Below the pieces are notes generated by a model. It did no database searches, had not been told where the DNA came from, and saw nothing but the letters and a program-made list of their open reading frames with translations. Positions 18,527 to 58,207 of a DNA stretch of 64,000 nucleotides are shown here, in pieces. The DNA comes from Candidatus Nitrosymbiomonas proteolyticus (GTDB taxonomy: Bacteria > Armatimonadota > Fimbriimonadia > Fimbriimonadales > Fimbriimonadaceae). The translations under genes and the position numbers were made by a program. How positions within the stretch are numbered: position 1 is the first letter of the stretch; each line of letters begins with the position of its first letter. The stretch covers positions 2,312,472-2,376,471 of the forward strand of contig AP021858.1 in assembly GCA_017347465.1 (NCBI GenBank). The letters are read 5' to 3'.

Positions 18527-19123
18527 CTACAGGTCGAAGGGGCAGCGATCCCAGGGGGTTCGCACTCTTCCCCACCGCGCGAGCAGCGACTCGTACTCCT
18601 CTTGCGAGATGTCGAATGAGCCCATCGACTCCAGATGCGGGTTGGGGATCTGGGCGTCGAACACCTGGAACCCGAATGAGCGGCAGAGGTGAACGGCCTC
18701 GACCAGTGCGACCTTGGACGCGTTGGTTTCGGCATGGAACATCGATTCCGCCGAGAAAACGGAGCCGATGGCGAGGCCGAAGAGGCCCCCGACGAGCCGT
18801 TCCCCCTGGTAGACCTCGACCGAGTGCGCCCAGCCTTCGATATGCGCTTGCACGTAGGCCCGGATCAGCCCCTCCGTGATCCAGTTGTCGGCCTCTCTCA
18901 GACACCCGCGCACCACGTCTTCGAACCTGCGGTCGGCGGCAACCTCGAACGCCCGGCGACGGAGCACCGCTCTGAGAGTCCGCGAGACCCGCGCGCCTTC
19001 GATCGGAAAAAGCGCCCTGCGGTCGGGTTTGTACCAGTTCAACTCACCCGCCGCATCGCCCATGACGAACGCTCCGCAGAGATAGCCGTACCGCATTTCC
19101 CAGGTCGTGAGTTCGGGCCGCAT
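18527..19123 (-). CDS. aat: Leucyl/phenylalanyl-tRNA-protein transferase
   Basis: The 198-residue enzyme adds Leu or Phe from its tRNA to proteins with N-terminal Arg or Lys, marking them for ClpAP-type degradation (N-degron pathway). Family blocks are clear: WYKPDRRALFP, the ADNWITEGLIRAYVQAHIEG and AHSVEVYQGERLVGGLFGLA segments, FSAESMFHAETNASKVAL and FDAQIPNPHLESMG. It is slightly short at the N-terminus compared with the E. coli enzyme. It follows the methyltransferase gene with a 6-base gap, so they are probably co-transcribed. Confidence 0.92.
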   Translation of the reverse strand: MRPELTTWEMRYGYLCGAFVMGDAAGELNWYKPDRRALFPIEGARVSRTLRAVLRRRAFEVAADRRFEDVVRGCLREADNWITEGLIRAYVQAHIEGWAHSVEVYQGERLVGGLFGLAIGSVFSAESMFHAETNASKVALVEAVHLCRSFGFQVFDAQIPNPHLESMGSFDISQEEYESLLARWGRVRTPWDRCPFDL

Positions 19124-19129
19124 CTTGAC

Positions 19130-19846
19130 CTAGAAAGAACTGCGCTCCCACAGCATCGCATGGAACAGCGGCGCGATCGAGAGGTCCGCCATACCGGGGT
19201 CGGCCTCAAGCGCTGCGGGGGTGGGGATCGGTTCGAGGTACTCCCTCAACAGAAACCCGCTCCGAAGGAACGCGCCGAAGAACCGCTCCAGCGTCCGATG
19301 GTGCTGCATCACGGTGATTCCGCGCCACGACTGGACCCCGCCGGGATACTCGAAGTAGCGGTGAACGGGCCAATGGAGCTTCCTCCCCTCGGAGTCCTTC
19401 ACCCAACCCGAAGAACAGGTGGAGATCGGAGTCACATTGCTCACGACGCATCGTCCCCCCGGCCGCAACACCCTGGCGATCTCGGCAACCGCTTCCTCGA
19501 AGCCTTCGATGTCGACGAACGTGACGTAGGAAACGACTTTGTCGAACGCGCCGTTGGAAAACGGAAGGCGCTCGCCGCGAGACCGGGCTAGGCGGCTGAG
19601 GCCCTTTTCTTTCGCTGAGGCAAGCAAGGCCCGGACGGGGTCGATACCCACAACGCTTGCCCCGAGTTCGGCGAGCATTTTGCCGAATCGCCCTTCACCG
19701 CAGCCGACATCGAGGATCACTACCCTGTTCACGTCGCCACAGAGCCTCAGCATGACCTCGTCGAGCAGGTGCGTTCGGTTTGAGTCGCCCTCGTCGACGA
19801 ACTTCTGCCAGGCGTCCGCGGACTCGATCCAACCTCCCTCTTTCAT
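19130..19846 (-). CDS. Class I SAM-dependent methyltransferase
   Basis: The 238-residue enzyme has a Rossmann-type methyltransferase fold: VVILDVGCGEGRFGKML (motif I, about 42-58), VVGIDPVRALL (motif II acidic residue), FDKVVSYVTFVDIEGFEEAV (motif IV) and RVLRPGGRCVVSNV (post-motif). The C-terminal region (about 140-238), rich in aromatic residues, should set the substrate, which is unknown. It is most like UbiE/COQ5-type and related methyltransferases. It lies just upstream of aat on the same strand. Confidence 0.85.
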   Translation of the reverse strand: MKEGGWIESADAWQKFVDEGDSNRTHLLDEVMLRLCGDVNRVVILDVGCGEGRFGKMLAELGASVVGIDPVRALLASAKEKGLSRLARSRGERLPFSNGAFDKVVSYVTFVDIEGFEEAVAEIARVLRPGGRCVVSNVTPISTCSSGWVKDSEGRKLHWPVHRYFEYPGGVQSWRGITVMQHHRTLERFFGAFLRSGFLLREYLEPIPTPAALEADPGMADLSIAPLFHAMLWERSSF

Positions 19847-19882
19847 GAAGAAGATTTAACCGGATACCGGCTCCAGATCGCT

Positions 19883-19888
19883 CATAAT
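19883..19888 (+). promoter_or_regulatory. Predicted -10 box of a leaderless gene
   Basis: CATAAT ends six bases before the ATG at 19895, the same spacing seen upstream of the genes at 11766 and 36743. There is no ribosome-binding site between them. Confidence 0.5.
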
Positions 19889-19894
19889 CTGGGC

Positions 19895-20320
19895 ATGACC
19901 GATGCAACTTTTCGAGCCACGATGGAGAGCCCCGGACACAAGCTCCGAGCCGCCTTCGAGGGTTTTCCCGACGCCGGGCTCGACGCTCAACTATCGCCCC
20001 AATCGATGACGCCCCGCCAGATCGCGGAGCACCTGTGCGACTGCTACCTCGCCTTTGAGGACGCTCTCCAGGGGAAGAAACACGACTGGGGAGCCTACAC
20101 GGCCAAGGGCAGCAGTTCCGAGGAGCTTCTCCAAGAGATGATGTCGCTCCGTGGGGCGGCCGTCGAGAAGGCCCTCGCCGCGACCGAGGTGAAGCACAAG
20201 CTCGAAGCGCTCGAGTACATCTCCCTGCATGACGAGTACCACATCGGCCAGCTCTGCCTGCTTCGCTTGGAAGCCGATCCGGAGTGGAAGTTCGACAGCA
20301 TCTATGCCCATCTGATGTAG
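19895..20320 (+). CDS. DinB-family protein
   Basis: The 141-residue four-helix-bundle protein belongs to the DinB/YfiT-like superfamily. Metal-binding histidines are visible at HLCDCYLAFED (about 46) and in HDEYHIGQLCLLR (about 112 and 116). Many relatives are thiol-dependent transferases (bacillithiol, mycothiol or glutathione users), but the substrate cannot be deduced. It is divergent from the methyltransferase gene and probably leaderless. It ends about 120 bases before rpsB on the same strand, but rpsB has its own -10 element. Confidence 0.82.
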   Translation: MTDATFRATMESPGHKLRAAFEGFPDAGLDAQLSPQSMTPRQIAEHLCDCYLAFEDALQGKKHDWGAYTAKGSSSEELLQEMMSLRGAAVEKALAATEVKHKLEALEYISLHDEYHIGQLCLLRLEADPEWKFDSIYAHLM

Positions 20321-20338
20321 ATTCAAACGGCACCGAGG

Positions 20339-20344
20339 TATACT
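20339..20344 (+). promoter_or_regulatory. Predicted -10 box of the rpsB operon
   Basis: TATACT lies 96 bases before the rpsB start, leaving a leader of about 90 bases. In many bacteria this leader is where S2 represses its own operon; no particular fold is claimed here. Confidence 0.45.
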
Positions 20345-20440
20345 CGGCGCTCAAATCACACGGTCGTCGCTCCGCCGCAGGTGGCCCCATGGGCTAAGGC
20401 GAGGCTCCAGCGCGACCGGCGGAACAACCTGGAGGAAAAC

Positions 20441-21370
20441 TTGGCGCAACTCAGCATGAAAGAACTGCTGGAGTCGGGTGTGCATTTCGGCCACCAGACC
20501 CGGCGGTGGAACCCCAAGATGAAGCGATACATCTATGGGGCTCGCAACGGAATCTATATCGTCGATCTCCATCAGACGATCAAGCTCTTCGAAGACGCGC
20601 TCGAATTCGTCAAAAGCATCGTCGAAGACAACGGCACGATCCTTTTCGTCGGAACGAAAAAGCAGGCTCAGTCTGCGGTCAAAGAAGCCGCACAGCGCAG
20701 CGGCCAGTACTGGGTCAACGAGCGGTGGCTCGGCGGGATGCTCACGAACTGGAAGACCATTCAGCTTCGCGTCCAGCGGCTGAAGGAGCTCGACCGGATG
20801 GAGGAAGACGGCTACTTGGCCCGACTCCCTAAGAAGGAGATGCTCAAGCGGCGGGAAGAGCGAGACAAGCTGAACCGGTATCTCGAAGGCATCCGAGACA
20901 TGGACCGCATGCCCTCATGCCTTGTCGTCATCGACGTCAACAAAGAGGCGATTGCCATCCACGAGGCTCGAAAGCTCGACATCCCGATCGTCGCCATCGT
21001 CGACACGAACTGTGACCCCGACCTCGTCGACTACGTGATCCCAGGGAACGACGACGCCATTCGAGCGATTCGGCTCGTTGCAGGAAAGATCGCTGAGGCC
21101 ATCCTTGAAGCGAAGGCGATCGACGAAGGACTCACCGAAGGGACCTTGACCCCAGAAGGCGAGGCCGTCGATGAGGCGATCGTGTTCGGTGACGTAGAAG
21201 AGGAGTTGCTCCGAGCGTTCTCAGGCGATTCCGGAGGCGCGAGTTCGGCGCAAGCCCAGCCGGCAGGCGAAGTCGCCGTTGCCGAAGCTGCCCCAGAGCC
21301 GGCGCCGGCGGAAGCCGCCGAGGAAGAGGCCGGGAGCGATCTGGACGACTTGGACGAGGAAAGTATCTGA
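20441..21370 (+). CDS. rpsB: 30S ribosomal protein S2
   Basis: The 309-residue protein of the small ribosomal subunit is easily recognised: [51 protein letters not shown] and [20 protein letters not shown]. It carries a C-terminal extension of about 60 residues, rich in Ala, Glu and Asp, beyond the usual S2 core. The start is taken as TTG at 20441 because GGAGG lies 5 bases upstream and the N-terminus (AQLSMKELL) then matches the family; an in-frame ATG at 20381 would add an odd basic tail. It leads the rpsB-tsf-pyrH-frr-uppS operon. Confidence 0.96.
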
Positions 21371-22213
21371 ATGGAAATCAGTGCAGAGTTAGTAAAGAGG
21401 CTCCGCAGCGAAACGGACGCCCCGCTGATGGAGTGTAAGGCCGCGCTTCAGGAAGCGAAGGGCGACTTCGAGCGGGCTAAGGCCATCTTGCGAGAAAAGG
21501 GAAAGGCTGCAGCTGCGAAGCGGTCGGACCGGTCGACTTCGGCGGGCCTTGTCGTCGTCGCCTTGTCGGACGACCAGAAGCAGGCAGGGGCGGTGGTTCT
21601 CGAAAGTGAAACCGACTTCGTGGCCAAGAACGACGACTTCGTCGCGCTCGCCGAGCAACTGGCCAAGGCGTTTCTTGCGTCGGACCCTGGTTCTGACCCC
21701 AACGCGGTTGCCGTCGACGGAAAGACAGCGGGCGCGTGGGTTGAAGAGGCCATCGGAAAGATCCGCGAGAACATCCGGATCGGCGACGCGGTTCGGTTCT
21801 CCGCCGACTCGCCCGTTTCGGTATACGTCCACCACGACAAAACGAAGGCAGCTTTGGTTGGGATGAAGGGTGACAACCCGGCGCTTCAGGAAATCGGGCG
21901 CAAGATTGCCATCCAATGCGTTGCGTTCCCGCCTGACGTGATCCGACGCGCCGACTTGTCCCAAGAGATGCTCGACCGCGAGATCGAAACCGAAACGCAG
22001 CGGGCCCTGAACGAAGGCAAGCCTGAGAACATCGCTCGAAACATCGCTCAAGGCCGAGTCAATAAGGAGTATGTGAAGCGGGTCGTGCTGCTGGAACAGG
22101 ACTTCTACGCCGACGCGTCGAAAACCGTGAGCACGTACCTTGCCGAACAGGTAAAAGAGGGAGGCTCCGCCGAAGTGGTGGCCTTCCGATACCTCGCCGT
22201 CGGCAAGACGTAG
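21371..22213 (+). CDS. tsf: Elongation factor Ts
   Basis: The 280-residue nucleotide exchange factor recycles EF-Tu-GDP to EF-Tu-GTP. The N-terminal UBA-like module (1-55) contains the hallmark TDAPLMECKAAL (about 16-27). The core includes SETDFVAKNDDF (about 78-89), another family signature, then the dimerisation-type repeats with VYVHHDKTKAALVGM. Its ATG directly follows the rpsB stop codon with no gap, so translation is coupled. Confidence 0.97.
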   Translation: MEISAELVKRLRSETDAPLMECKAALQEAKGDFERAKAILREKGKAAAAKRSDRSTSAGLVVVALSDDQKQAGAVVLESETDFVAKNDDFVALAEQLAKAFLASDPGSDPNAVAVDGKTAGAWVEEAIGKIRENIRIGDAVRFSADSPVSVYVHHDKTKAALVGMKGDNPALQEIGRKIAIQCVAFPPDVIRRADLSQEMLDREIETETQRALNEGKPENIARNIAQGRVNKEYVKRVVLLEQDFYADASKTVSTYLAEQVKEGGSAEVVAFRYLAVGKT

Positions 22214-22219
22214 GCCAGA

Positions 22220-22945
22220 ATGCAACGACGTCAGGAACTTCGGCGAGTGCTCATCAAACTTTCCGGCGAGGCGCTCGCCGGTGGCGTCGGCTTTGGCTTG
22301 GACCCTGACACCCTCAAGTACATCGCCTGCGAAATCGCCGAAGTCCACGCGCTCGGCGTTCAGGTGGCGATCGTCGTTGGCGGGGGCAACTTCGTCCGCG
22401 GTGAGGCGTTCGCGGGAAGCGGCTCTGTCGATCGCACAGCCGGCGACCAGATGGGGATGCTCGCGACGATCATCAACGCGCTCGCCCTGCAATCCGCGAT
22501 TGAGGCGAGCGGGGTCCCCACACGGGTTCAGAGCGCGATCAACGTTTCCGAGGTGTGCGAGCCCTTCATTCGGAGGCGCGCGATGCGGCATCTCGAACGG
22601 GGCCGGGTCGTGGTGTTTGCGGCGGGAACAGGAAACCCCTACTTTACGACCGACACTGCGGCGGTCCTTCGGGCGCTCGAAGTCGAGGCGGATTGTCTCC
22701 TCAAAGCGACCAAGGTGGACGGAGTCTACAACAAGGACCCCAAGAAGAACTCCGATGCGGTTCGCTTCGAAGAATTAAGCTTCAGCGATGCCATCGACGC
22801 TCGTCTGGCTGTGATGGATCAAACGGCGTTCACGATGTGCAGGGAACACAATCTCTCGGTAATCGTATTAGACTTTCATCAGAAGGGTGCCTTGGCGCGC
22901 GCTGCGCGAGGCGAAACCGTCGGAACACTGGTAGGAGCGGATTGA
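22220..22945 (+). CDS. pyrH: UMP kinase
   Basis: The 241-residue hexameric bacterial UMP kinase makes UDP from UMP and ATP in pyrimidine nucleotide synthesis. It belongs to the amino-acid-kinase fold: VLIKLSGEALAG (about 8-19), IVVGGGNFVRGE (about 51-62), DQMGMLATIINALALQ, FAAGTGNPYFTTDTAA and KATKVDGVYNKDPKKN. It starts six bases after tsf. It is part of the translation operon, an arrangement shared with many bacteria. Confidence 0.97.
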   Translation: MQRRQELRRVLIKLSGEALAGGVGFGLDPDTLKYIACEIAEVHALGVQVAIVVGGGNFVRGEAFAGSGSVDRTAGDQMGMLATIINALALQSAIEASGVPTRVQSAINVSEVCEPFIRRRAMRHLERGRVVVFAAGTGNPYFTTDTAAVLRALEVEADCLLKATKVDGVYNKDPKKNSDAVRFEELSFSDAIDARLAVMDQTAFTMCREHNLSVIVLDFHQKGALARAARGETVGTLVGAD

Positions 22946-22946
22946 C

Positions 22947-23507
22947 ATGAGCGTAAACGAGATTCTCAAGGATGCTGACCACCGGATGGATCAGTCGATC
23001 GAGTCGATGAAGCACGATTTTCAGAGCATTCGAACAGGACGCGCCAATCCCTTGGTCCTCGAAAGGGTCAAAGTGGACTACTACGGCGTCGAATGCCCGA
23101 TCAATCAGGTCGCCAACGTGACCGTCCCTGAACCCAGACAGTTGATGGTCACGCCGTTCGAGCGCAACATGCTCGGCCCGATCGAGAAGGCAATTCAAAA
23201 GAGCGACCTTGGCATCAATCCCCTCAACGATGGGCAATGCCTGCGACTCAACTTCCCCCAGATGACCGAGGATCGGCGCAAAGAGATGGTAAGGCAAGTC
23301 AACGCTCGCGCGGAGCAAGCCTGTGTCGCCATCCGCAACGTCCGCCGCGATGCCATCGAGCACCTCAAGGCCCTTGAGAAGTCGAAGGAACTCAGCGAAG
23401 ACGAACTCAAGCGCCACGAACATAAAGTCCAGGAAATGACCGACAAGCACATCGCCAACGTCCACGAGCTTCAAAAGCGCAAGGACGAAGAGCTTATGGA
23501 GGTCTGA
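22947..23507 (+). CDS. frr: Ribosome recycling factor
   Basis: The 186-residue factor splits post-termination ribosomes together with EF-G. The family signature is clear: FQSIRTGRANPLVLERVKVD (about 26-45), VNVTVPEP-like ANVTVPEPRQLMVTPF, NDGQCLRLNFPQMTEDRRKEM and the long C-terminal helix ending in KRKDEELMEV. The ATG comes one base after pyrH; a GGAG near 22934 inside the end of pyrH serves as ribosome site. Confidence 0.97.
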   Translation: MSVNEILKDADHRMDQSIESMKHDFQSIRTGRANPLVLERVKVDYYGVECPINQVANVTVPEPRQLMVTPFERNMLGPIEKAIQKSDLGINPLNDGQCLRLNFPQMTEDRRKEMVRQVNARAEQACVAIRNVRRDAIEHLKALEKSKELSEDELKRHEHKVQEMTDKHIANVHELQKRKDEELMEV

Positions 23508-23512
23508 GGCCC

Positions 23513-24298
23513 TTGGCCCAATCCACCGCTTCCGGCGGCGCGTCCCGGTTCGATTCGGAACCCCTCAGGCTGGCCGCCGAAATGGGGCTGGACCTCGAAC
23601 GCCTGCCTGCTCATGTGGCGGTCATCATGGACGGCAACGGGCGCTGGGCGCAAAAGCGCGGCCTTGAACGGCTTCTGGGGCATCGCGAGGGCTACCGAGT
23701 GTTGCGGCGAGTGTTGCTCGATTGCAGCGAACTAGGCATCGAGTTTCTCACGGTCTACGCGTTCTCGGCTGAGAACTGGAGACGCCCTGAGAGCGAGGTT
23801 TCCGGGCTGTTCTCCCTCATCGAACGGGCAGCGAGAGACGAGCTGCGGGTCATGCACCAGAACCGCGTTCGCATTCGCGTTGCCGGCGACCTCCAGGCCC
23901 TCCCCAAAGGGCTGCAAGATGCGCTCCGAGAGGGCATCGAGACCACGCGCGAAAACGCAGGGATCACGTTCACGCTGGCGCTGAACTACGGGGGACGCGC
24001 AGAGATCGTCGAGGCGATCCGAAAGATCGTCCGGGCCGGAAGTCCGCCCGAGGACGTGACCGAGGAACTCGTCGGCGCGAGCCTCTACAACCCCGACATC
24101 CCCGATCCGGACCTCGTCATCCGAACCGCCGGAGAACGCAGGTGGAGCAACTTCCTCCTTTGGCAGGCTGCGTATTCGGAGCTGTTCGTTTGTCCCGAAC
24201 CCTGGCCCGAATTCTCGACCCGGAGCCTCGTTACCGCGCTCTGTGATTTTCAGAATCGTGAGCGAAAATTTGGCGGGTTGGAACCCAGTTCCGAGTAG
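23513..24298 (+). CDS. uppS: Isoprenyl transferase (undecaprenyl diphosphate synthase)
   Basis: The 261-residue cis-prenyltransferase makes the C55 lipid carrier for cell-wall synthesis. Hallmarks are HVAVIMDGNGRWAQKRGL (about 34-51, catalytic Asp in the DGNGRWA motif), GHREGYRVLRRV, LTVYAFSAENWRRP, TLALNYGGRAEI and PDLVIRTAGERRWSNFLLWQ. A Trp replaces the usual Leu/Ile in ERRxSNF. The likely start is TTG at 23513, five bases after frr, with GGAGG inside the end of frr. An N-terminal extension of about 30 residues precedes the conserved core. Confidence 0.95.
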   Translation: MAQSTASGGASRFDSEPLRLAAEMGLDLERLPAHVAVIMDGNGRWAQKRGLERLLGHREGYRVLRRVLLDCSELGIEFLTVYAFSAENWRRPESEVSGLFSLIERAARDELRVMHQNRVRIRVAGDLQALPKGLQDALREGIETTRENAGITFTLALNYGGRAEIVEAIRKIVRAGSPPEDVTEELVGASLYNPDIPDPDLVIRTAGERRWSNFLLWQAAYSELFVCPEPWPEFSTRSLVTALCDFQNRERKFGGLEPSSE

Positions 24299-24365
24299 CC
24301 CGGCACTCACCCTCGCAGAATTGCGGGACGGAACAATCGCTCCCTCATCCGAGTCGAAATGCCTG

Positions 24366-24371
24366 TACAAT
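24366..24371 (+). promoter_or_regulatory. Predicted -10 box of the secreted protein gene
   Basis: TACAAT lies 20 bases before the GTG start at 24392, with GGAGG (24378-24382) between them. Confidence 0.4.
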
Positions 24372-24391
24372 CCATTTGGAGGCGACACACG

Positions 24392-25690
24392 GTGAACTTA
24401 TCCGCGCGCATTTTGGCGATTCTCTCCTTAGTCTTCGTCGGCGCTCTGTCGATGGCCCAACGCAACATCTTCGAGCCGCCGCCCGAGCGCTCCTACGGGG
24501 TCTTCGAACTGGCTTACGGGAAGGTTCGGATGCCGAACGGCAAGTACCGAGACGTGTCCGGGCTGAAGATTCCTTACCAGATCGAGCGCATCTATCCGGG
24601 CACGAAAGGCACATCGGGACGAGCGCGCCACCCCGAGGCAGCCACCGCCTATCGGAACGATAACGGCGATCCCACTTACTACGTTTCTGGCTTGGCGATG
24701 CCGAGCGCGCTCGACGACGTGACGCTTGCCAGCACCGGCCAAGGTCAGCCGTGGACTCAAGTGACCGTCGGCATCATGAACACGTCGATGGACCGTATCC
24801 TCCTGAGGTGGATCGCGTACGATCGCTACGTTTCCGGCCTTGGGGCGGGAGTGAGCGCGTTTTACGATGTGATCGCCGACTGGGGCGGCTTTACGGTCAA
24901 CCAACTGGGCCAGAATATCTTTCCCAGCACTGGAACCTGGAAAATCACCTTCGACTTTTCGATCGTGGGCATCGTGGTGCCGGATGGAGAATGCTACTTT
25001 GCAGCTCAATTCCGTGAGCCTTTCGGAGTGCCGGACGGCCCCTTCCGCAACGACTTCTTCCCCGTTTTCAGCGGCGGTGGCGTGAGCGTGGGAATCAGCG
25101 ACGACCTGTTCTGGTACGACTGGGACCCCGAACCCAACGGTGTTTATGAGGAGACCGAGGTCGATTACTTCAACGGTCCGCCCAACGAGGCCAACTTCCT
25201 GCTGCAGATCGACACTGGGGGCACGACGACCGAGCTCTTCCCCTTCAGCTATACGATCTTCGCCGGACGGTACGTCTCAGGCTCGTTCGTCGACCTATGG
25301 TTCAGCGACAACTCCTACCTGGTCGTCGATGCCTTCAACGAAGACGAAAGGCCGTACCCGATCAGCGTCATGTTCGACTCCCAATCGCCGACCGCGACGC
25401 CCCTCAGCCTGACCTTCAAGTTGGAGTCTGCGACCATTGCTGACGGGTATGAAGTGGTCATTATGCTGTTCAACTACCAAGACAACAGGTTCGACGTGGT
25501 GCAGCGTACCGGCACTTCGAGCATCGACCGCGAGATTTCGGTGACGATCGGGAGCAACCCTGCGAAGTACGTTCATCCGAGTTCGCGGGCCGTTCGCGCT
25601 CTCGTGCAATATCGAGAGTCGGCGGTCGAGCTTGCCCAACTCTGGTGGACCAAGATCGACAGGGCCACCTGGCTGATCACGCGGCCCTAA
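24392..25690 (+). CDS. Large secreted protein, unknown function
   Basis: This 432-residue protein has a signal peptide (hydrophobic core about 5-21, ending near LSMA-QR). The mature part is rich in Tyr, Phe, Asp and Gly and looks all-beta, with segments such as WITFD-like TWKITFDFSIVG and EANFLLQIDTGG. No catalytic motif or named domain is seen. The GTG start is supported by GGAGG nine bases upstream and a -10 box. It is the last gene before a strong bidirectional terminator and is transcribed separately from uppS. Confidence 0.72.
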   Translation: MNLSARILAILSLVFVGALSMAQRNIFEPPPERSYGVFELAYGKVRMPNGKYRDVSGLKIPYQIERIYPGTKGTSGRARHPEAATAYRNDNGDPTYYVSGLAMPSALDDVTLASTGQGQPWTQVTVGIMNTSMDRILLRWIAYDRYVSGLGAGVSAFYDVIADWGGFTVNQLGQNIFPSTGTWKITFDFSIVGIVVPDGECYFAAQFREPFGVPDGPFRNDFFPVFSGGGVSVGISDDLFWYDWDPEPNGVYEETEVDYFNGPPNEANFLLQIDTGGTTTELFPFSYTIFAGRYVSGSFVDLWFSDNSYLVVDAFNEDERPYPISVMFDSQSPTATPLSLTFKLESATIADGYEVVIMLFNYQDNRFDVVQRTGTSSIDREISVTIGSNPAKYVHPSSRAVRALVQYRESAVELAQLWWTKIDRATWLITRP

Positions 25691-25710
25691 CGCCACCTTT
25701 CCGTGGTTGA

Positions 25711-25752
25711 ACATCCGGGGGTTGCCGACTTGGCAGCCCCTGGGTGTTTCTT
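25711..25752. terminator. Bidirectional intrinsic terminator
   Basis: A stem of about 16 bp pairs 25711-25726 with 25732-25747 around the loop GACTT, with one mismatch and two G-T pairs. TTTCTT follows on the plus strand, and the other side begins with TTCAACCACGG on the minus strand. It sits between two convergent genes and probably serves both, more strongly the plus-strand one. Confidence 0.75.
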
Positions 25753-25759
25753 GCTGAAA

Positions 25760-26176
25760 CTACTCGTCGCTCGTTACTTCGATGTTCCAGTAGATCGGCT
25801 TGGTCGAAAGTTGCCAGGAGTCCGTGATCTTCTCGGGCGTCAGCCTTTCCATCGCCTTCACAAACCGGCCGATCCGCACGCTGCTCGGCTTCTCTTTGAG
25901 GGCCGCCCGCGCCGCTTCCAGAGCCTCCTCATACCGTCCCAAGCGGTCCAGGCACCTCGCCAACGAGAACGCCGCCTGCCAGAAGTGAGGGTCGAGTTCC
26001 AACGCTTTGCGAAACTGCTCCGCCCCTTGGGTTTCGTCGCCCAAGTGGCAATGGCAGGTGCCCAGCACGGCGTTTGCAGCCGCGTGGGTCGGGTACTTCG
26101 CCACGAGTTCCTTGGCCTCGGCCAGGGCGTCCTCCCACTTCCCCGCTCGTATCAATCGCTCGACATGCTCGATCAT
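25760..26176 (-). CDS. TPR-repeat protein
   Basis: The 138-residue cytoplasmic protein consists of about three tetratricopeptide repeats: EHVERLIRAGKWEDALAEAK, AANAVLGTCHCHLGDETQGA and WQAAFSLARCLDRLGRYEEA, so it probably mediates protein contacts. The ATG at 26176 has AAAGGC five bases upstream. Longer in-frame starts would run back through the tRNA antisense sequence and are rejected. Function beyond scaffolding is unknown. Confidence 0.75.
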   Translation of the reverse strand: MIEHVERLIRAGKWEDALAEAKELVAKYPTHAAANAVLGTCHCHLGDETQGAEQFRKALELDPHFWQAAFSLARCLDRLGRYEEALEAARAALKEKPSSVRIGRFVKAMERLTPEKITDSWQLSTKPIYWNIEVTSDE

Positions 26177-26244
26177 TTCGCCTTTTCTAAGATACATGAG
26201 AACGGTCCTGAAGGACTCCCCGTTGGCTCGAATCTGGGCTGCGA

Positions 26245-26265
26245 CTGGTATAATTCCATTCCCGC
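26245..26265 (+). promoter_or_regulatory. Extended -10 promoter and leader of tRNA-Arg(GCG)
   Basis: TGG-TATAAT (TATAAT at 26249-26254) forms an extended -10. It is followed by TTCCATTCCC and then the tRNA at 26266, so the leader is about five bases. The same block, with two changes, precedes the other tRNA-Arg at 58132. Confidence 0.7.
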
Positions 26266-26341
26266 GCGCTCGTAGCTCAGTGGATAGAGCATCAGGTTGC
26301 GGACCTGGAGGTCGGAGGTTCGAGTCCTCTCGAGCGCGCCA
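26266..26341 (+). tRNA. tRNA-Arg (anticodon GCG)
   Basis: The 76-base cloverleaf folds cleanly. The acceptor GCGCTCG pairs with CGAGCGC; the D arm is GCTC/GAGC. The anticodon stem TCAGG/CCTGG carries the loop TTGCGGA, giving anticodon GCG, which reads CGC and CGU as arginine. The T arm has TTCGAGT, and the 3' CCA is encoded. Bacteria usually read these codons with an inosine-modified ACG anticodon, so a genomically encoded GCG is noteworthy. Confidence 0.93.
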
Positions 26342-26359
26342 ATTCCCCGCTTGTCCATA

Positions 26360-26399
26360 CCGGACACATGGGTTCCAGATCGTTCCGGACACATAGGTT
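26360..26399. repeat. Short direct repeat, possible IS-end remnant
   Basis: CCGGACACATGGGTT (26360-26374) recurs as CCGGACACATAGGTT (26385-26399), one mismatch, period 25. Such GTGTCCGG/ACCTATGTG words occur at ends of some IS481- or IS3-like elements; no transposase gene remains here. Confidence 0.45.
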
Positions 26400-26506
26400 A
26401 CACCTTTGTGGCCGACAGGGAGTTGAGCGGATCAACCCCAATGTTCGTGGTTCAGCAGGCGCCCCTGTGTCTGAATTCCAGGACACACCCGGCAACACCC
26501 TTAGAT

Positions 26507-26819: not shown

Positions 26820-27340
26820 CTGAAAGACTACCCTTGCGGATCGCGTTTGCTCACCTGACTGGTCCCCCAAAAACTGACCAGCCTCGAGTTTGACTTTCTT
26901 CGTCTGGAATCAAGGAGACACCCTGAGCAGAGGAAGACGTTACGGCGAGTGTCTGGTCCCCATTTCTCGACCAGGTCACGGGGACGCATTCCGGCAAGCT
27001 CATGGACCGCAGAACCGGCGGGGCGGCAACGGTGAGCGCTTCGTCGCTTCACCCTCGTGACATCTTCCTCCACCGTCTCGAACGGGGCTTGGGAGGAATC
27101 TGCCACGGGCTTAGGCTATAGACATGTCGCTCCTACGGAGCTTGGGTTTGCCTGACGATCGGCGATAGAGACATGCCGCTCCTACGGAGCTACGGAGGAA
27201 GCTGTTATGGGTAGTGGCTCCGGTCGACCTGCTTCCGGCCCGGCTACCCACGGAAAAGCCCGGTGAGTCCGGGGCTTCAACCCCAGGGACAGCCCGAAAG
27301 AAACCCCACCTATTGCAATCTTTGTGCAATAATCATCGAA
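26820..27340. other. Repeat-rich gap downstream of tRNA-Arg
   Basis: About 520 bases without a believable gene. It holds an imperfect inverted word around 26854-26875 (CTGGTC, CCCCCAAAAA, GACCAG), the 22-base direct repeats at 27121-27191, and a GC-rich palindromic stretch at 27225-27300 (CCCGGTGAGTCCGGGGCTTC and neighbours). The mixture suggests decayed mobile or REP-like DNA. Confidence 0.45.
27121..27191. repeat. Two direct repeats with internal palindrome
   Basis: GACATGTCGCTCCTACGGAG plus CT at 27121-27142 recurs at 27170-27191 with one change (T to C), period 49. Each copy contains GCTCC-TAC-GGAGC, a 5-bp stem. The arrangement is typical of a small dispersed palindromic repeat family. 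Confidence 0.6.
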
Positions 27341-58110: not shown

Positions 58111-58131
58111 CTGGTAGAATTCCATGCCCGC
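58111..58131 (+). promoter_or_regulatory. Extended -10 promoter and leader of tRNA-Arg(UCG)
   Basis: TGG-TAGAAT (TAGAAT at 58115-58120) forms an extended -10, followed by TCCATGCCC and the tRNA at 58132. It differs at only two positions from the block before the tRNA at 26266. Confidence 0.7.
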
Positions 58132-58207
58132 GCGGGCGTAGCTCAACGGATAGAGCATCAGTCTTCGGAACTGAGGGTTGGGGGTTCGAGTCCCTCCGCC
58201 CGCGCCA
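58132..58207 (+). tRNA. tRNA-Arg (anticodon UCG)
   Basis: The 76-base cloverleaf has the acceptor GCGGGCG/CGCCCGC, D arm GCTC/GAGC and anticodon stem TCAGT/ACTGA. The loop CTTCGGA gives anticodon TCG, reading CGA and probably CGG as arginine. The T arm is GGGGG-TTCGAGT-CCCTC, and CCA is encoded. With the GCG tRNA at 26266 it could cover all four CGN codons. It stands alone. Confidence 0.93.

What the first reader, a model, noticed from the sequence alone, without database searches (positions are those of the whole stretch)
26266..26341. tRNA-Arg with encoded GCG anticodon, paired with a UCG isoacceptor
Seen: clean cloverleaf with loop TTGCGGA. Most bacteria read CGU/CGC/CGA with a single ACG tRNA modified to inosine by TadA. 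Here GCG (CGC, CGU) and UCG (CGA, CGG; at 58132) could cover the CGN box without inosine. Inference: the organism may lack tRNA-Arg(ACG) and tadA.
Basis: partly seen in the sequence, partly recalled or inferred. Interest (0 to 1): 0.6.

Follow-up and report, generated by a model that had tools for sequence, protein, structure and literature searches.

The report
Bacterium reads arginine codons without inosine
This bacterium of the phylum Armatimonadota decodes the arginine CGN codons with three plain tRNAs and lacks the inosine-making enzyme TadA, a scheme known from a few other bacterial groups and shown here to dominate almost an entire phylum.

Summary
The tRNA-Arg(GCG) at 26266-26341 is real, and so is the UCG isoacceptor at 58132. 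The window lies in a single-contig genome (2.81 Mb, 99% complete) of the same species as Armatimonadota isolate H1_ARM1. Its arginine tRNAs are GCG, UCG, CCG, UCU and CCU. There is no ACG tRNA and no A34 tRNA of any kind. It has only three enzymes of the CDA fold (RibD, a dCMP deaminase and Cdd), so there is no TadA. Across 291 genomes of the phylum, TadA occurs in 13, and tRNA-Arg(ACG) tracks it (11 of 13 against 5 of 278, p about 1e-14). In an RpoB tree the TadA carriers form one group, with one nested loss: family f17 has a GCG tRNA in exactly the slot where its sister has ACG followed by tadA, and its anticodon arm is a CCG arm with base 34 changed. The decoding scheme itself is published for Candidate Phyla Radiation bacteria, Thermotogae and Spirochaetes, so this is a new member of a known kind. 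CGA codon use does not differ systematically between the two states.

The parts
26266..26341 (+). tRNA-Arg, anticodon GCG (loop TTGCGGA, encoded CCA, A20, G73)
   Evidence: ARAGORN; Rfam RF00005 68.8 bits; sequence
58132..58207 (+). tRNA-Arg, anticodon UCG (loop CTTCGGA, encoded CCA)
   Evidence: ARAGORN; Rfam 69.2 bits (G000:C1:2370603-2370675); sequence
26249..26254 (+). TATAAT, likely -10 element of the GCG gene; also present in H1_ARM1
   Evidence: sequence; function inferred
58115..58120 (+). TAGAAT, likely -10 element of the UCG gene, in the same spacing and flank (TGGTAKAATTCCATKCCCGC)
   Evidence: sequence; function inferred

Best explanation
This is the tRNA that reads CGU and CGC in a bacterium that does without wobble inosine. 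Shown: the genome encodes Arg tRNAs GCG, UCG, CCG, UCU and CCU, no ACG tRNA, no other A34 tRNA and no TadA. Inferred from wobble rules: G34 of the GCG tRNA reads CGC and CGU, UCG reads CGA (and CGG), CCG reads CGG, so all four codons are covered without deamination. Shown by comparison: this is the normal state of the phylum Armatimonadota, while ACG plus TadA is confined to one group of families in it. Inferred: the TadA-free state arose by loss at least twice, because the tadA neighbourhood is shared with Chloroflexota and because family f17, nested inside the TadA group, carries GCG in the very slot where its sister family has ACG followed by tadA.
For: Own genome. Species and phylum: locus L128 (CP054189.1, H1_ARM1) is 97.8% identical over 7.8 kb including the tRNA; the name is placed in Armatimonadota. 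Phylum: TadA over the cut-off in 13 of 291 genomes, all 153 bits or more, next best 87.5 bits; a set of the 55-87-bit proteins examined are other deaminases. GCG pattern in 233 of 291; the pattern-negative genomes G008, G014 and G041 have GCG too, with loop TTGCGGT. ACG with a paired stem: 11 of 13 TadA genomes and 5 of 278 others, p 1.3e-14. UCG pattern in 255 of 291. RpoB tree: minimum 2 changes of state, shuffled mean 7.8. f17 against f18: same cluster Ser(GCU)-Arg(GCG or ACG)-Arg(CCG), with Arg(CCU) after it in G061 and G065 and tadA only in f18; GCG arm CTGGCCTGCGGAGCCAG equals the CCG arm except base 34.
Against: No expression, charging or modification data, so decoding is inferred. CGA use relative to other A-ending codons does not differ between TadA and TadA-free genomes (medians 1.31 and 1.13, p 0.42), so there is no codon-usage signature of the switch across the phylum, although this genome itself uses CGA in 27.7% of CGN codons in the window. 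The direction (loss rather than gain of TadA) rests on an unrooted single-gene tree and on gene neighbourhood. Four TadA-free genomes carry a plausible ACG tRNA: two in 9-12-gene tRNA arrays, one on a 3.9-kb contig, one at a contig edge.
Confidence: 0.93

Rival explanations
2. The GCG tRNA is a recent acquisition from a phage or mobile element and not the core decoder.
For: Some large Armatimonadota genomes carry GCG or ACG tRNAs in 9-12-gene tRNA arrays of mobile-element type; similarity to H1_ARM1 ends about 60 bases downstream of the gene, at CCGGACACAT repeats.
Against: It is a single gene with its own promoter-like site, present with its upstream region in H1_ARM1 at 97.8% identity, in single copy across the family with a nearly constant sequence, and no other tRNA in the genome could read CGU/CGC well.
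Confidence: 0.03
3. TadA and ACG were gained once in the phylum by transfer (the GCG state is ancestral), instead of being lost elsewhere. This rival concerns only the history, not the present decoding.
For: TadA genomes form one group in the RpoB tree and tRNA-Arg and tRNA-Ser genes lie beside tadA in most of the loci examined, so they could have travelled as one cluster; GCG tRNAs of like sequence occur in many phyla.
Against: A TadA homologue next to tRNA-Ser(CGA)/(GGA) is also found in Chloroflexota, which suggests an old shared neighbourhood; f17 is clearly a loss.
Confidence: 0.3

Closest known systems
Candidate Phyla Radiation CGN decoding (PMC8629427)
   Same: No tRNA-Arg(ACG); GCG reads CGU/CGC, UCG and CCG read CGA/CGG, as stated in that paper.
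   Different: Here in ordinary-sized (mostly 2-7 Mb), often GC-rich genomes; arginine codon reassignment was not looked for.
Thermotogae and Spirochaetes with tRNA-Arg(GCG) instead of ACG (PMC8007984)
   Same: G34 replaces A34 in the Arg CGN box.
   Different: Another phylum; here both states occur within one phylum, with an in-place switch visible.
Mollicutes without TadA (PMC3711424)
   Same: Loss of tadA with alternative CGN tRNA sets; some (M. suis, M. pulmonis) have GCG plus UCG.
   Different: Mollicutes are reduced, lack CCG and prefer AGA; this genome keeps CCG and uses CGN for about 82% of arginines in the window.
Standard bacterial ICG system: TadA plus tRNA-Arg(ACG) plus CCG
   Same: Present in 13 Armatimonadota genomes by TadA, 11 of them with ACG found.
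   Different: Absent from this genome.

Membership tests
Inosine-free CGN decoding (GCG/UCG/CCG), as in CPR | tRNA-Arg(GCG) and tRNA-Arg(UCG) present | tested here: met
Inosine-free CGN decoding (GCG/UCG/CCG), as in CPR | tRNA-Arg(CCG) present | tested here: met
   L015, G000:C1:1511662-1511734
Inosine-free CGN decoding (GCG/UCG/CCG), as in CPR | No tRNA-Arg(ACG) in the genome | tested here: met
Inosine-free CGN decoding (GCG/UCG/CCG), as in CPR | No tadA | tested here: met
Inosine-free CGN decoding (GCG/UCG/CCG), as in CPR | No inosine at position 34 in vivo; GCG reads CGU and CGC, UCG reads CGA | not testable with these tools
   needs tRNA sequencing or mass spectrometry
Standard TadA / tRNA-Arg(ICG) system | tRNA-Arg(ACG) plus TadA (HAE...PCxxC, FF tail) | tested here: not met
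tRNA-Arg | Arg identity elements A20, C35, A/G73 | tested here: met
   sequence; charging itself not tested

The most novel reading that the evidence does not exclude
Inosine decoding was lost at least twice inside one phylum of ordinary-sized bacteria, and one of these losses is still readable: in family f17 a copy of tRNA-Arg(CCG) with C34 changed to G took over the ACG slot of a Ser-Arg-Arg-Arg tRNA cluster and tadA next to it vanished. Armatimonadota would then be a natural experiment for how an essential tRNA-editing enzyme becomes dispensable.
Probability: 0.55. Interest if true: 0.5.

Novelty: new member of a known kind. Interest (0 to 1): 0.38.

Why it matters
TadA is essential in E. 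coli and present in most bacteria. That almost a whole phylum of ordinary-sized bacteria lacks both it and its substrate, while one branch of the same phylum keeps both, gives a matched comparison for what wobble inosine is good for. It would also mean that these bacteria lack the TadA-dependent mRNA editing reported elsewhere (PMC12255301).

Tried and rejected
A clade without either GCG or ACG (families f10, f13/g74), suggested by the pattern search, was an artefact of requiring A38: an Arg-tRNA model found GCG with loop TTGCGGT. UCG as a mark of the TadA-free state was rejected: TadA genomes G005, G007 and G065 have UCG as well. A relief of CGA avoidance in TadA-free genomes was tested on samples of 32 genomes and not found. 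The 55-87-bit TadA-model hits examined in other Armatimonadota are guanine-deaminase-like and other nucleoside deaminases by motif, not TadA. Centring a genome search on another phylum through a locus was not possible. Rooting the RpoB tree with an outgroup was not done.

Full report
What is there. ARAGORN places tRNA-Arg(GCG) at 26266-26341 and tRNA-Arg(TCG) at 58132-58207, both on the plus strand. The GCG gene scores 68.8 bits with the Rfam tRNA model and has loop TTGCGGA, A20, G73 and an encoded CCA. Both genes are preceded at the same distance by a -10-like hexamer within a shared flank.

Which organism. Locus L128 from CP054189.1, 'Chthonomonadaceae bacterium isolate H1_ARM1', matches window 18555-26398 at 97.8% identity including the tRNA. 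That taxon is placed in Armatimonadota. The window's genome is one contig of 2,809,316 bases, 99.07% complete.

Complete tRNA set. The tRNA model gives 45 genes over the cut-off; all were read with ARAGORN, and a tRNA-Sec was added by its own model. The arginine set is GCG, UCG, CCG, UCU and CCU. There is no ACG and no A34 tRNA at all. Pro-GGG is the one expected G34 tRNA not found.

No TadA. The NCBIfam TadA model reaches only 37 bits (cut-off 150) in this genome, at RibD. The cytidine-deaminase-fold Pfam model finds three proteins: RibD (338.8 bits to TIGR00326), a ComEB-like dCMP deaminase (best match 143.7 bits to TIGR02571, below that model's curated cut-off), and a cytidine deaminase Cdd. 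None is TadA.

How it most likely works. By wobble rules (general knowledge), G34 reads CGC and CGU, UCG reads CGA and can read CGG, and CCG reads CGG. The genome thus covers the CGN box without deamination. In the 64-kb window CGA makes up 27.7% of CGN codons, 2.5 times the average share of A-ending codons in five other boxes. This fits a dedicated CGA reader, but it is not a general mark of TadA-free genomes (median ratio 1.31 with TadA, 1.13 without, p 0.42). Most GCG tRNAs of the phylum have U32 and A38, while the UCG and ACG tRNAs mostly have C32 and A38. Whether this Watson-Crick U32-A38 pair helps G34 to avoid misreading CGA/CGG, as the A32-U38 pair is said to do in tRNA-Ala(GGC) (recalled, not tested), is an idea only.

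Spread over the phylum. Of 291 genomes, 13 have TadA over the cut-off, with a clear gap (lowest 153 bits, next 87.5). The intermediate proteins that were read differ from the TadA set in the LNH and FF motif regions and look like guanine or other nucleoside deaminases. An ACG tRNA with a paired anticodon stem is found in 11 of the 13 and in 5 of the other 278 genomes (Fisher p 1.3e-14; cells are genomes, which are related, so the p value is only a guide). Of these five, one (G026) is not confirmed by ARAGORN, two lie in tRNA arrays, one lies on a short contig and one at a contig edge. GCG matches occur in 233 genomes, with a few chance matches among them and some real genes missed, since genomes from two pattern-negative groups turned out to have GCG. 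UCG matches occur in 255.

Evolution. An RpoB tree of 27 genomes needs two changes of state, against 7.8 in shuffles. The TadA carriers are one group, with family f17 nested inside it as a TadA-free member. In f18, sister of f17, the order is Ser(GCU)-Arg(ACG)-Arg(CCG)-Arg(CCU) with tadA about 100 bases further on; in f17 it is Ser(GCU)-Arg(GCG)-Arg(CCG), followed in G061 by Arg(CCU), with no room for tadA before the next tRNA. The f17 GCG anticodon arm is identical to its CCG arm except for base 34 in G061 and G062, and f17's UCG is 91% identical to f18's ACG. This reads as a loss of inosine decoding in which a CCG-derived GCG tRNA replaced ACG. The large TadA-free part of the phylum has a differently built GCG tRNA (TTGCGG loop), so the two switches are probably separate. 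Whether the larger one was a loss or the original state is not settled; the neighbourhood of tadA with tRNA-Ser(CGA)/(GGA), shared with Chloroflexota, favours loss.

Comparison with what is known. The same tRNA scheme is described for the Candidate Phyla Radiation (PMC8629427: GCG for CGU/CGC, UCG and CCG for CGA/CGG), and GCG in place of ACG for Thermotogae and Spirochaetes (PMC8007984). Mollicutes without TadA are described in PMC3711424, and a review states that bacteria without A34 tRNAs also lack TadA (PMC8072771). No paper in the held library was found that reports it for Armatimonadota; two key surveys (Diwan and Agashe 2018; Rafels-Ybern 2019) could not be read, so it may be in their tables. 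I file it as a new member of a known kind.

Verdict. Interest is moderate: the decoding state is known elsewhere, but the phylum-wide distribution and the in-place switch in f17 make a useful comparison.

Noticed in passing
L352-L356 (Chloroflexota genomes of loci L107, L157, L096, L112, L146): All five Chloroflexota genomes with a strong TadA-model match have a TadA homologue beside tRNA-Ser(CGA), in four of them also Ser(GGA), in which the catalytic HAE reads HAV (Glu to Val, a change also known from eukaryotic ADAT3) while the zinc cysteines stay and the FF tail is lost. It is gap-free over 131 residues and pN (0.20-0.30) is well below pS (0.46-0.63), so it looks like a maintained pseudo-deaminase in bacteria that carry tRNA-Arg(GCG). 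No report of it was found in the held papers.
   Followed up: partly
G000:C1:908143-908210 (L048) and 534764-534815 (L050): Besides a tmRNA (58.4 bits) there is a second tmRNA-like 3' end with encoded CCA (34.9 bits, under the cut-off), perhaps an attachment-site remnant or a diverged second copy.
   Followed up: no
window 26360-26402 and 26953-26974: Just downstream of the GCG tRNA, where similarity to H1_ARM1 ends, lie two CCGGACACAT-type direct repeats and, further on, a palindromic CTGGTCCCCATTTCTCGACCAG; the same palindrome lies beside the tmRNA-like end in L048. Possibly remnants of mobile elements.
   Followed up: partly
L075, L076, L078, L089, L090: Large Armatimonadota genomes carry arrays of about 9-12 tRNA genes, some holding an ACG or GCG Arg tRNA that may be extra to the core set.
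   Followed up: no
L254, L259, L260: GCG tRNAs of families f10 and f13/g74 have U38 (loop TTGCGGT) instead of A38.
   Followed up: no
G000:C1:814862-814950 (L051): The genome encodes a selenocysteine tRNA (74.4 bits), and no tRNA-Pro(GGG) was found although Pro-UGG and Pro-CGG are present.
   Followed up: no
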